From Opitutaceae bacterium EW11 (GTDB taxonomy: Bacteria > Verrucomicrobiota > Verrucomicrobiia > Opitutales > Opitutaceae): a stretch of DNA of 64,000 nt. The notes under the pieces were generated by a model. It was not told the origin of the DNA and ran no database searches. It saw only the letters and a program-made list of their open reading frames with translations. The stretch lies in the NCBI GenBank assembly GCA_003054665.1, contig QAYY01000016.1, positions 62,001 to 126,000 on the forward strand. Reading direction: 5' to 3'. Positions 58,263 through 63,475 of this stretch are shown here, in pieces. The translations under genes and the position numbers were made by a program. Positions within the stretch are counted from its first letter, which is position 1. Each line of letters begins with the position of its first letter.

Positions 58263-58517
58263 GACGTCAGAGGCCAGCGGACAGAGACAACAGGTCGGAC
58301 CTCAGAGGTCAGAAATCAGATCTCAGACGTCGGCTGGTTCGAGCGAGGCCTCCTCTAGGAGGCGTGTCCGTTGGCATCTCACTCGAGCGGGAAGTCCGCG
58401 CCCCCCCAGCTCGTCATTTCCGCCCCCCCACGGTCACGTCCGACTTTCATCGTCCGCTTCGTGCATCGGCCCTCCGGCCTTCCATCTGGCCTCTGATGTC
58501 CGACCTCTGATTTCTGC
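58263..58517. repeat. Intergenic 7-base-period inverted repeat (GAGGTCA type, copy 1)
   Basis: Left arm 58263-58332 is ten consecutive 7-mers of the form GA-x-x-TCA (GACGTCA, GAGGCCA, GCGGACA, GAGACAA, CAGGTCG, GACCTCA, GAGGTCA, GAAATCA, GATCTCA, GACGTCG), starting two bases after the rseP stop. Right arm 58483-58517 is the inverted form in phase (CATCTGG, CCTCTGA, TGTCCGA, CCTCTGA, TTTCTGC). The 150-base spacer holds two runs of seven C. It fills most of the 305-bp rseP-ispG gap; no gene is seen in it. Confidence 0.85.
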
Positions 58518-58565
58518 ATTGGCCTTCTTTGCGGCGGCGCGTCCATACTCCCCACTCGCGTTTCC

Positions 58566-60596
58566 ATGGCATACTGCGCTTCTCGTTTCCACACCGTCCG
58601 CCGTCGGACGATCGAGGTGAAGGTCGGCTCCGTCGGTGTCGGTGCCCATCATCCGATCCGTATCCAGTCGATGACCACGAGCGACACTCAGGACGTCGCC
58701 GCGACGGTTCGCCAATGCATTGCCCTGGCCGAGGTGGGGTGTGAAATCATCCGCATCACGGCTCCGAACGTACAGGCCGCCCAGTGCCTGAAACCGATCC
58801 GCGAGCAGTTCAGTGCGGCAGGGTTCGGCCAGATCCCGCTGGTGGCGGATATTCATTTTCTCCCGCAAGCCGCAATGGAGGCGGTGGAGCACGTCGAGAA
58901 GGTTCGCGTGAATCCCGGAAACTACGCCGACAAGAAGAAGTTCGCGACGCGGGAGTATTCCGATTCCGAGTATGACGACGAACTCGTCCGACTCCACGAG
59001 GCGTTTACTCCACTCGTGAAACGCGCCAAGGAGCTCGGACGCTCCCTGCGCATCGGCACGAATCACGGGTCGCTTTCCGACCGGATCATGAACCGTTACG
59101 GCGACACTCCGCTCGGCATGGTGGAGAGCGCCCTGGAATTTCTCCGGATCGCCCGTTCGCATTCGTTCGACCAGATCATCCTCTCGATGAAGGCCTCGAA
59201 TCCGAAGGTGATGATCCAGGCCTACCGGCTGCTCGTTGAGCGCATGCAGCAGGAGGACATGCACTTTCCCCTGCACCTCGGCGTGACCGAGGCAGGCGAC
59301 GGCGAAGACGGACGCATCAAAAGCGCCATCGGCATCGGCAGCCTCCTCCTCGACGGGCTGGGCGACACGATTCGCGTCTCGCTCACGGAAGATTCGGTCT
59401 ACGAAGTGCCTGTCGCCCGCGCAATGGCCGACAAAGCCATGTCCCGCTGGCAGGGAGCCTCCACGCCCGCCGGGGCGTCGCAGGATTCGATCGACCCCTT
59501 CCACTACAGCCGCCGGGGCGTCGTGAGCCTGAGTCTGGGCAGCACCGAGGTTGGGATCGAACAGCCCCCGCGCGTGCTCGTACGCGCGCCGTCGACCGCC
59601 AGTTTCGCGGAGTCACTCGGCGCGCTCCAGTCTCCGCGGCTCAAGGATACGCCCGCCGAAGGTGTGATCGTGGCGGTGGATTCGGCATCGGCGTTCGCCG
59701 GTCTCGAAAAGACCCTCGCCGCCACCGGGAACACTCCTGTGTTCGTCGCTTTGGAACTCAGCAATCGGATCGCTCCGGGGGAATTCGGCGCCGCCCGCCT
59801 ATCCCAACAGGCGCGGCTGTGGATTCGCGAGTTCGACCTGGCCGCCCCGGGGGCCCTTCGCAGTTGGGCCGATCTCGCCCGCTCGAAAAACGCCGTGCTC
59901 GCGTGCTCGGTGCGCCCGGAGCACGTCCCGGGGTTGTCGGGCATCATCCGCTCAGAGGATGCCCAGCACCTGCTCTTCACGCTGGCATGCGAGACGGCGC
60001 CTCACGCCCCCGCCCACCCGATCGGCCGCTACCGGCTTCTCGCCGACGCGCTGCGAGCCGCCGGCTGCCGCGCCCCCCTCTGGATTCGTAACACCGCCGC
60101 CACTACGCTGGGCGGGGATCTTTCCTTCCTCAGCCGTTTGCTGGATGCGAGCATCCTCACCGGAACGCTGCTCTGCGACGGCATCGGCGATCTCGTCAGC
60201 GTCGAAACGGAGTCGGATCCGACCCGAGCGACCAAGCTCGCCTACAATGTCCTGCAAGGCGCCGGAGCCCGCATCTCGAAGACGGAATTCGTCGCCTGTC
60301 CGAGCTGCGGACGGACCCTTTTCGATCTTCAGACGACAACGCAACGGATTCGCGCGAAAACCGGGCACCTGAAGGGCGTGAAGCTCGCGATCATGGGCTG
60401 CATCGTGAACGGCCCCGGCGAGATGGCCGACGCCGATTTCGGCTACGTCGGCGGAGCCCCGGGGAAGATCAACCTCTACGTCGGGAAGACCTGCGTGCAG
60501 TACAACATCCCGCAGGAAGAGGCCGACGACCGACTGATCGCCCTGATCAAGGCGCACGGGAAATGGGTGGAGCCGGAAGCCGCTCCCGCGGTCTGA
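58566..60596 (+). CDS. ispG: 4-hydroxy-3-methylbut-2-en-1-yl diphosphate synthase, long form
   Basis: Penultimate MEP-pathway enzyme with a [4Fe-4S] cluster. The N-terminal TIM-barrel part has HPIRIQSMTTSDTQD and the C-terminal reductase part has the cluster cysteines CPSC and GCIVNGPGE. At 676 residues it is the long form with a third, central domain (about 290-560), as in plants, chlamydiae and some other bacteria; typical bacterial IspG has about 370-420. The insert lacks obvious motifs. Confidence 0.95.
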   Translation: MAYCASRFHTVRRRTIEVKVGSVGVGAHHPIRIQSMTTSDTQDVAATVRQCIALAEVGCEIIRITAPNVQAAQCLKPIREQFSAAGFGQIPLVADIHFLPQAAMEAVEHVEKVRVNPGNYADKKKFATREYSDSEYDDELVRLHEAFTPLVKRAKELGRSLRIGTNHGSLSDRIMNRYGDTPLGMVESALEFLRIARSHSFDQIILSMKASNPKVMIQAYRLLVERMQQEDMHFPLHLGVTEAGDGEDGRIKSAIGIGSLLLDGLGDTIRVSLTEDSVYEVPVARAMADKAMSRWQGASTPAGASQDSIDPFHYSRRGVVSLSLGSTEVGIEQPPRVLVRAPSTASFAESLGALQSPRLKDTPAEGVIVAVDSASAFAGLEKTLAATGNTPVFVALELSNRIAPGEFGAARLSQQARLWIREFDLAAPGALRSWADLARSKNAVLACSVRPEHVPGLSGIIRSEDAQHLLFTLACETAPHAPAHPIGRYRLLADALRAAGCRAPLWIRNTAATTLGGDLSFLSRLLDASILTGTLLCDGIGDLVSVETESDPTRATKLAYNVLQGAGARISKTEFVACPSCGRTLFDLQTTTQRIRAKTGHLKGVKLAIMGCIVNGPGEMADADFGYVGGAPGKINLYVGKTCVQYNIPQEEADDRLIALIKAHGKWVEPEAAPAV

Positions 60597-60625
60597 TCGC
60601 GCCACCACACGGCCCCGCTCGGCGG

Positions 60626-60681
60626 CCCCCCTTCGCCCTTTCGAAGCCCGCCGAGCCCGTCCCTTTCGTTCTTTCGCACCG
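60626..60681. repeat. Intergenic repeat with 8-base period after ispG
   Basis: Seven consecutive 8-mers beginning at 60626 (CCCCCCTT, CGCCCTTT, CGAAGCCC, GCCGAGCC, CGTCCCTT, TCGTTCTT, TCGCACCG), 30 bp past the ispG stop. It shares the 14-mer CCTTTCGTTCTTTC (60662-60675) with the gap element at 53565-53578. Units are more degenerate than those of the 7-base type. Confidence 0.55.
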
Positions 60682-62564: not shown

Positions 62565-62704
62565 GCCTGCCGAATCCGCCTCGCGGCCGATGGCCCATGC
62601 CCGGCCACAAGGCGGAGCCCCTTTTCTTCCGGCGTTGGCGGAAAGCGGTAACTTGACGCCCCGCCGCAAGTGTAGACCGTGGGCAGTTCAACGCTGCATT
62701 TCCC

Positions 62705-63313
62705 ATGACACTCACGCCTGAGCAGAAACAAGCGGTCTCCGACTGGGTCGCGGCCGGCGCCAATATCTCGGAGGTCCAGAAGAAGCTCCTGGAGCAGTTC
62801 AAGATCTCCATGACGTACATGGATGTCCGCTTCCTCGTGGATGACCTGAATCTGGCGTTGAAGGACCCGACTCCCAAGCCGGACGCCAACGACGTTTCAA
62901 AAGCGCCGCCCGCGCGAGCCGCGGGCGAAAAGCCAGCCGAGAAGAAAGGGTTTCTGGATCGGGCAAAAGAGAAGCTCGGCCTCGGCAAGGAAGAAGAGGA
63001 CGTCGGCGCAGGCGAACTCGACGAGGAGCTTCCGGGAGACGAACTCGCGGAAGACGCAGAAGCGTTTCCCGAAGGCGAAGCCCTCGGTGCGAGCAACGTC
63101 ACGGTGGCGGTCGACAAAGTGACCCTCCACCCCGGCGCTCTCGCCAGCGGTTCAGTGACCTTCAGCGACGGCGTGACAGCAAAGTGGCTGGTCGACAACT
63201 ACGGCCGCCCCGGCTTCACCGAGGTCAGCAAGCCCGGCTACCGTCCCAGCCAAGCTGACGCCCAAGCCTTCATGCAGGAGCTTTCCCTCGCGCTTCAGAA
63301 TCGCGGGTACTGA
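62705..63313 (+). CDS. Protein of unknown function downstream of dnaA
   Basis: Not recognised. 202 residues, no signal or membrane helix. The N-terminal 50 residues (TPEQKQAVSDWVAAGANISE, VQKKLLEQFKISMTYMDVRF) look like a helical, possibly DNA- or protein-binding unit. A charged Lys/Glu/Pro linker (about 55-130) follows. The last 65 residues (TVAVDKVTLHPGALASGSVT, GVTAKWLVDNYGRPGF) form a compact beta-type domain. Its position between dnaA and ligA hints at a chromosome-linked role, but that is only position. ATG at 62705, 140 bp after dnaA. Confidence 0.75.
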   Translation: MTLTPEQKQAVSDWVAAGANISEVQKKLLEQFKISMTYMDVRFLVDDLNLALKDPTPKPDANDVSKAPPARAAGEKPAEKKGFLDRAKEKLGLGKEEEDVGAGELDEELPGDELAEDAEAFPEGEALGASNVTVAVDKVTLHPGALASGSVTFSDGVTAKWLVDNYGRPGFTEVSKPGYRPSQADAQAFMQELSLALQNRGY

Positions 63314-63321
63314 GCGCGGAA

Positions 63322-63475
63322 GACAGAGGTCGGAGACCAGAGGACAGGGGTCGGAAGTTGGACCTCAGACGTCAGAGGTCTGACAGAGAGCGCCGGCCGC
63401 TGTCCGGCATTGAGAACGTTCGCCGGCCATCGGACGGCGCTCCGATTTCCGGTGCCTGACCTCTGACATCCGGCT
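63322..63475. repeat. Intergenic 7-base-period inverted repeat with central hairpin (GAGGTCA type, copy 2)
   Basis: The left arm 63322-63391 is ten 7-mers (GACAGAG, GTCGGAG, ACCAGAG, GACAGGG, GTCGGAA, GTTGGAC, CTCAGAC, GTCAGAG, GTCTGAC, AGAGAGC). In the middle, AGCGCCGGCCGCTGTCCGGC pairs with a 20-mer ending GGACGGCGCT (17 of 20 by eye, 13-base loop, about 63389-63441). A short inverted arm (CCTGACC, TCTGACA, TCCGGCT; 63455-63475) stops exactly at the ligA stop codon. The unit is a rotation of the 58263 repeat. It fills the gap between two convergent genes and may end both transcripts. Confidence 0.85.

What the first reader, a model, noticed from the sequence alone, without database searches (positions are those of the whole stretch)
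58263..63475. GAGGTCA 7-mer inverted arrays in the rseP-ispG and unknown-gene/ligA gaps
Both gaps hold ten in-phase 7-mers in the left arm (units GA-x-x-TCA or its rotation) and a shorter inverted arm on the right. The arms end within 0-8 bases of a stop codon on at least one side. The second copy has a 20-bp imperfect hairpin in the middle. Same principle as the CCAACTT elements (7-base period, inverted arms, hairpin) with a different unit, so a general rule rather than one sequence is being spread.
Basis: seen in the sequence. Interest (0 to 1): 0.65.

Follow-up and report, generated by a model that had tools for sequence, protein, structure and literature searches.

The report
Inverted seven-base repeats at gene ends
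Two gaps between genes in this Opitutaceae-like bacterium hold degenerate seven-base repeats in mirror-image arms that start right behind stop codons; they belong to a family of dispersed, hairpin-forming elements whose short unit differs from genome to genome, close to repeats already described in Xanthomonas.

Summary
Gap 1 (58262-58515) has arms of 10 and 4 heptamers; gap 2 (63318-63471) has arms of 9 and 5 plus a 55-nt central hairpin. Lag-7 identity beats all 2000 shuffles in each gap (z 4.8 and 6.3); the RNA folds at z -4.8 and -5.2.

The window's CCAACTT elements fit the same frame, RGANNTY. In the own genome three units in a row occur 62 times, against 1 for the reversed pattern. Simple two-array clusters of opposed arms are 24 inward, 0 outward. 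GGAAGTT-type arms are capped outside by a GC-rich hairpin (42 of 52); GAGGTCA-type arms are not (0 of 28).

Sister genera show the design with other units. One genome has 96 matches, its five sampled congeners 0-3. Some sites are array-free in congeners.

Best reading: short dispersed MITE- or REPIN-like palindromes, tolerated at gene ends, whose arrays grow by slippage and fold when transcribed. Mobilising enzyme and function remain unknown. Closest known: Xanthomonas GGGAATC arrays (PMC4692102). New variant of a known kind.

The parts
58262..58331 (+). element 1, left arm: 10 in-phase heptamers (RGANNTY, GAGGTCA type), starting 1 nt after the rseP stop
   Evidence: array scan, score 49.4; shuffles at most 15.7
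58332..58487 (.). element 1, core between the arms (156 bp)
   Evidence: folds with the arms at z -4.8
58488..58515 (-). element 1, right inverted arm: 4 heptamers, ending 50 nt before the ispG start
   Evidence: array scan, score 26.0
63318..63380 (+). element 2, left arm: 9 heptamers, one of them GGAAGTT, starting 4 nt after the stop of the unknown gene
   Evidence: array scan, score 49.0
63388..63442 (.). element 2, central imperfect hairpin
   Evidence: minimum-energy fold
63437..63471 (-). element 2, right inverted arm: 5 heptamers, ending 4 nt from the ligA stop codon
   Evidence: array scan, score 23.1
21272..21300 (+). GGAAGTT-type element, decayed left arm (below the array threshold; read by eye)
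   Evidence: sequence; tandem repeat 21271-21300
21381..21422 (-).
   Evidence: array scan, score 38.4
21423..21444 (.). GC-rich hairpin cap abutting that arm on its outer side
23714..23748 (-). GGAAGTT-type lone arm, 5 heptamers
   Evidence: array scan, score 28.4
23749..23767 (.). GC-rich hairpin cap abutting that arm on its outer side

Best explanation
Each gap holds one member of a family of dispersed, intergenic, palindromic elements whose arms are degenerate heptamer arrays in the frame RGANNTY. Inferred: such elements arrive at gene ends as short non-autonomous mobile palindromes, working like MITEs or REPINs and moved by an unidentified enzyme. They persist mainly where they do little harm, most often directly behind stop codons. 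Their arrays then grow, shrink and drift by replication slippage. Shown here: the arrays, their inward polarity, their place at gene ends, strong folding, sites without arrays in congeners of a related genome, and a high copy number of the same design in one genome of a genus that otherwise has few. Inferred: that read-through transcripts fold into the long hairpin and may stabilise or insulate neighbouring transcripts as a side effect.
For: Own genome: 62 matches against 1 for the reversed pattern. Two-array opposed clusters: 24 inward, 0 outward. In 0.864 Mb taken without regard to the pattern (window, C3:1-400000, C11:700001-1100000) the 5' end of the array is nearer to a gene in 19 of 23 arrays outside genes. 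Related sites: of the 80 relatives kept, 69 have an upstream ORF within 600 bp of ispG, median gap 52 bp, and 1 of 69 has an array, of another unit, where this genome has 305 bp. 0 of the 29 relatives read have an array behind the gene next to ligA. G049 against G001: 5 of 38 clusters could be placed, of which 3 are array-free in G001; the L239 site is also array-free in G120, G101 and G137. G115 has 96 matches against 0-3 in five congeners, with near-identical four-heptamer ends on many copies.
Against: No target-site duplication: 1 of 21 G115 elements and 0 of 10 g18 elements, like mismatched flanks. No mobilising gene found: no array within 1.5 kb of either of the two Y1 transposase genes, and G017 has elements but no Y1 match. 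At one site G001 has other heptamers in the same gap, which a simple insertion does not explain (by eye), and one of the five placed clusters lies inside a continuous alignment. No close relative of the window's own genome is held, so exact borders of the two elements are unknown. In Xanthomonas 83% of the arrays keep their place between two species and show no link to mobile elements (PMC4692102, section 14 and a passage of section 13).
Confidence: 0.45

Rival explanations
1. A 3'-end RNA element under selection: the arms pair in the transcript into a long stem directly behind the stop codon and act as a terminator, read-through barrier or decay block.
For: Folding: own GGAAGTT-type pairs median z -4.7 (17 elements, 12 below -3), GAGGTCA-type pairs -4.2 (7, 4 below -3), 80 array-free gaps -0.8 (4 below -3). 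12 of 17 arrays whose 5' end lies within 60 nt of a gene abut a stop codon. GGAAGTT-type pairs with callable neighbours lie between convergent genes in 8 of 16 cases, against 91 of 624 gene pairs.
Against: Arms do not co-vary within elements in the own genome (p 0.78 and 0.19 for GGAAGTT type, 0.38 for GAGGTCA type) nor in G115 (p 0.19; the next 13 nt p 0.97); only g18 shows it (p 0.011). No U-run terminator in the gaps. 3 of the 16 pairs lie between divergent genes, and arms also abut start codons (5 of 17).
Confidence: 0.3
2. Ordinary simple-sequence repeats that arise in place by slippage in purine- or pyrimidine-rich gene borders; the inverted arms come from template switching.
For: One own arm has 18 units, most of them perfect GGAAGTT copies. 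At the L239 site the congeners have a pyrimidine-rich stretch where G049 has the array. GAGGTCA-type arms have 3-17 units without a fixed unit order.
Confidence: 0.2
3. G-quadruplex-forming repeats, as proposed for Xanthomonas.
For: Layout, four-unit mode and strand rule are alike (PMC4692102, sections 10, 14-16 read).
Against: GGG occurs in 14 of 255 GGAAGTT-type units and 11 of 214 GAGGTCA-type units, so three-tetrad quadruplexes are not expected.
Confidence: 0.03

Closest known systems
GGGAATC / (GGGANTN)n arrays of Xanthomonas campestris and X. axonopodis (Rehm et al. 2015, PMC4692102; sections 10, 14, 15, 16 and passages seen)
   Same: Heptamer arrays, mostly intergenic, mostly four units, 70-75 convergent inverted pairs per genome, close behind stop codons with the purine-rich strand as coding strand, divergent gaps under-represented, function unresolved. 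The reported mean distance of 28 nt to the 5' neighbouring ORF is like the 21-33 nt seen here for GGAAGTT-type arms.
REP / REPIN palindromes and RAYT transposases (PMC3733652, passages seen; REPIN recalled)
   Same: GC-rich hairpins at gene ends, inverted pairs with a variable spacer. The paper reports Opitutus terrae, also a verrucomicrobium, as highly enriched in GTAG-tagged REPs.
MITEs (family features recalled; PMC10969869 search listing only)
   Same: Short, non-coding, terminal inverted repeats, high copy number in G115.
   Different: No target-site duplication and no autonomous partner found; cores differ widely.
TAACTGA heptamer repeats of Beggiatoaceae (PMC4679880, passages seen)
   Same: Intergenic heptamer sets spread over a genome.
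   Different: Direct repeats pointing at start codons, with one inverted case.
Cyanobacterial STRR heptamers (recalled; in PMC4692102 only a passage on Calothrix heptanucleotides was seen)
   Same: Intergenic tandem heptamers.
   Different: Not compared here.

Membership tests
Xanthomonas-type heptamer arrays | tandem 7-nt units in intergenic DNA, in convergent inverted pairs | tested here: met
   24 +- and 0 -+ among 54 clusters
Xanthomonas-type heptamer arrays | close behind stop codons on the coding strand | tested here: met
   12 of 17 arrays within 60 nt of a gene abut a stop
Xanthomonas-type heptamer arrays | four units most common | tested here: inconclusive
   27 of 52 GGAAGTT-type arms have four units; GAGGTCA-type arms have no clear mode, 5 of 28 have four
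Xanthomonas-type heptamer arrays | unit GGGANTN with GGG tracts | tested here: not met
   GGG in 14 of 255 and 11 of 214 units
REP / REPIN | GTAG or CGTC tag beside the hairpin | tested here: not met
   GTAG beside the outer end in 4 of 42 caps and at the inner end in 1; CGTC 0; random 10-mers 1.3% for GTAG
REP / REPIN | linked RAYT (Y1) transposase | tested here: not met
   no arrays within 1.5 kb of the two Y1 genes; G017 has elements but no Y1 match
MITE | terminal inverted repeats on many copies | tested here: met
   G115 and G017/G060 elements; in the own genome arms are inverted but diverged
MITE | target-site duplication | tested here: not met
   3 nt or more in 1 of 21 (G115) and 0 of 10 (g18), like mismatched flanks
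MITE | autonomous parent with transposase between the same ends | not tested
   none seen in the about 60 kb of G115 read, but no whole genome was searched for one
Intrinsic terminator | GC stem followed by a U run | tested here: not met
   no such site within either gap
Rfam family | match to a covariance model in the gaps | tested here: not met
   three sub-threshold matches in 57800-64000, none in the gaps

The most novel reading that the evidence does not exclude
A widespread kind of small genetic element defined by a format rather than a sequence: inverted arrays of a degenerate heptamer, sometimes capped by a GC hairpin of free sequence, placed at gene ends, in which the unit itself turns over in place (GGATTTT type in G049, other heptamers in G001 at the same gap). 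An unknown machinery would read the seven-base frame and the structure, not the letters.
Probability: 0.18. Interest if true: 0.8.

Novelty: new variant of a known kind. Interest (0 to 1): 0.5.

Why it matters
Heptamer arrays at gene ends are known in Xanthomonas and Nostoc without a function and were studied there as quadruplexes. A like layout in Verrucomicrobiota, with units that rarely hold GGG and with GC caps, says that quadruplexes are not the common cause. It also gives a comparative system (within genus g7 the count runs from 0 to 149 matches) in which origin, spread and effect on transcript ends can be tested.

Tried and rejected
Rejected: chance; a Y1/RAYT gene as obligatory mobiliser (a formal correlation over the 150 genomes was not computed); classic MITE with target duplication; U-run terminator; known Rfam RNA; quadruplex as general cause; selection for pairing inside each element as a shown fact (negative in the own genome).

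A second control consensus (RTCNNAY) gave 10 arrays at score 20 or more; the 12 of score 18 or more listed all fall on the same RGANNTY arrays read in another phase.

Led nowhere: the search for shared cores was dominated by arm matches and its output was cut; one clear shared core was seen (window about 21321-21360 with C11 about 732219-732258, 95% over 40 bp). Xanthomonas chromosomes were not at hand to look for a GC cap. Literature: searches listed no paper on heptamer arrays in Verrucomicrobia; only open-licence PubMed Central papers are held. Papers: PMC4692102 sections 10, 14, 15, 16 and passages; PMC4679880 and PMC3733652 passages; all others search listing only.

Limits: genes were called by my own codon-usage script, so start codons are uncertain. 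The arm tables mix stretches taken without regard to the pattern with sites found by it, and include some weak, possibly false arrays; one GAGGTCA-type arm with a short flank was dropped. Arrays inside called genes were set aside (1 own, 9 G049, 16 G115), as were arrays at stretch ends (2 G049, 7 G115). Surveys use the RGANNTY pattern and cannot show units outside that frame. The G001 reading at the L258 site is by eye.
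Full report
What is there. The window is C8:62001-126000 of a 6.4 Mb genome in 45 contigs. The 80 best relatives by IspG are Opitutaceae and other Verrucomicrobiota by their record titles, apart from one titled only 'bacterium'. The gap between rseP and ispG and the gap between a conserved gene downstream of dnaA and ligA (gene names from the finding and from general knowledge) each hold two arrays of degenerate heptamers in inverted orientation: 58262-58331 with 58488-58515, and 63318-63380 with 63437-63471.

More than chance. Lag-7 identity exceeds all 2000 dinucleotide shuffles in both gaps (z 4.8 and 6.3). The best array scores (49.4 and 49.0) far exceed those of 500 shuffles (maximum 15.7). 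Over 382 gaps of at least 80 bp, lags 7 and 14 have the most gaps with strong excess (9 and 8; other lags from 4 to 13 have 0-4), although lags 4, 8 and 12 also have a raised mean. In 0.864 Mb the RGANNTY scan gives 29 arrays of score 20 or more, the reversed consensus 1.

One frame, two types. One GGAAGTT unit sits inside the GAGGTCA-type arm of element 2. In the own genome three such units in a row occur 62 times, in 37 runs by my count of the listing, against 1 for the pattern read backwards. Of 54 clusters 24 are +-, none -+, 28 single, one ++ and one +-+. In the 0.864 Mb the 5' end of the array is the side nearer to a gene in 19 of 23 arrays outside genes. Of the 17 within 60 nt, 12 abut a stop codon, at 1-4 nt (5 arrays) or 21-33 nt (7 arrays), and 5 abut a start codon.

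GC caps. The 21-33 nt belong to GGAAGTT-type arms and are filled by a GC-rich hairpin that usually touches the first heptamer. It is present on 42 of 52 such arms, against 4.3% of shuffled flanks, 3.4% of 626 gene 3' ends and 0 of 28 GAGGTCA-type arms; 41 of 42 caps differ in sequence, and pairs swap C-G and G-C along the stem. Caps also occur on arms facing start codons (15 of 18). In G115 12 of 38 arms have a cap, and several caps contain the host stop codon (by eye), so there the hairpin may belong to the target site rather than the element.

Relatives. For the rseP-ispG gap, 69 of 80 relatives had an upstream ORF within 600 bp; the median gap is 52 bp and 1 of 69 holds an array, of another unit. 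Behind the unknown gene 118 of 120 genomes have a match; 30 loci were returned, one of them the own genome, and none of the other 29 has an array in the locus. Nine minus-strand loci had been read the wrong way round and were turned; in few of them is ligA the next gene. The pattern occurs in 99 of 150 genomes of the family and 153 of 288 of the phylum; the reversed control also rings in some of these and was not summed.

Same design, other units. G017 and G060 share AAGCTCC-type elements of 106-133 bp, one of them at what looks by eye like an orthologous site (L291, L295). G115 has many copies with near-identical four-heptamer ends, while five congeners have 0-3 matches. The polarity is reversed relative to the own genome: in G115 the 3' end is nearer to a gene in 28 of 31 arrays outside genes. 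These elements fold strongly (median z -8.4 for 21 and -8.1 for 10) and show no target duplication.

Presence and absence. Of 38 G049 clusters, 5 could be placed in the 0.4 Mb of G001 that I held. Three lack an array there, one has other heptamers in the same gap (by eye), and one lies inside a continuous alignment. The L239 site is array-free in four congeners; a fifth, G078, did not cover it fully. Flanks inside these gaps align poorly, so exact borders are not given.

Negative result on pairing. If each element were kept as a stem, its two arms should match each other better than arms of other elements. They do not in the own genome (p 0.78, 0.19, 0.38) or in G115 (p 0.19, 0.97); only g18 shows it for the outer 28 nt (p 0.011; next 13 nt p 0.60). 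So the strong folding follows from inverted copies of one family sequence and is not by itself proof of an RNA function.

Reading. I judge dispersed palindromic elements, tolerated at gene ends and reshaped by slippage, the likeliest account (0.45), a selected 3'-end RNA element next (0.3), slippage alone third (0.2). The closest published case is the Xanthomonas GGGAATC array (PMC4692102, sections 10 and 14-16 read): four units, convergent pairs, close behind stop codons, function unresolved. There 83% of the arrays keep their place between two species, which speaks against frequent movement in that genus. The present case differs by its unit, its GC caps and the evidence of gain.

Noticed in passing
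L361:874-1036 and 4627-4789, L362:1009-1162, L368:492-663 (G115): Cores of several G115 elements hold a second kind of short repeat in inverted arms, of the type accacagagacacaaaggcacagag, with a period of about nine bases.
   Followed up: no
Host or phage origin not checked.
   Followed up: no
window 62705-63313: Uncharacterised protein of 202 aa downstream of dnaA, with a match in 118 of 120 genomes of the family; in many only its two ends match.
   Followed up: no
window 60597-61142: A 546-bp gap upstream of dnaA, a possible origin region; not examined for DnaA boxes or skew.
   Followed up: no
L170, 40 to 6 nt before its ispG start: The one relative with an array in the rseP-ispG gap has a direct array of GGTCATT/GGACATT units.
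   Followed up: partly
L055:3393-3518 (own genome C2 about 223892-224017): The longest own arm: 18 units, most of them perfect GGAAGTT copies, which suggests recent expansion.
   Followed up: no
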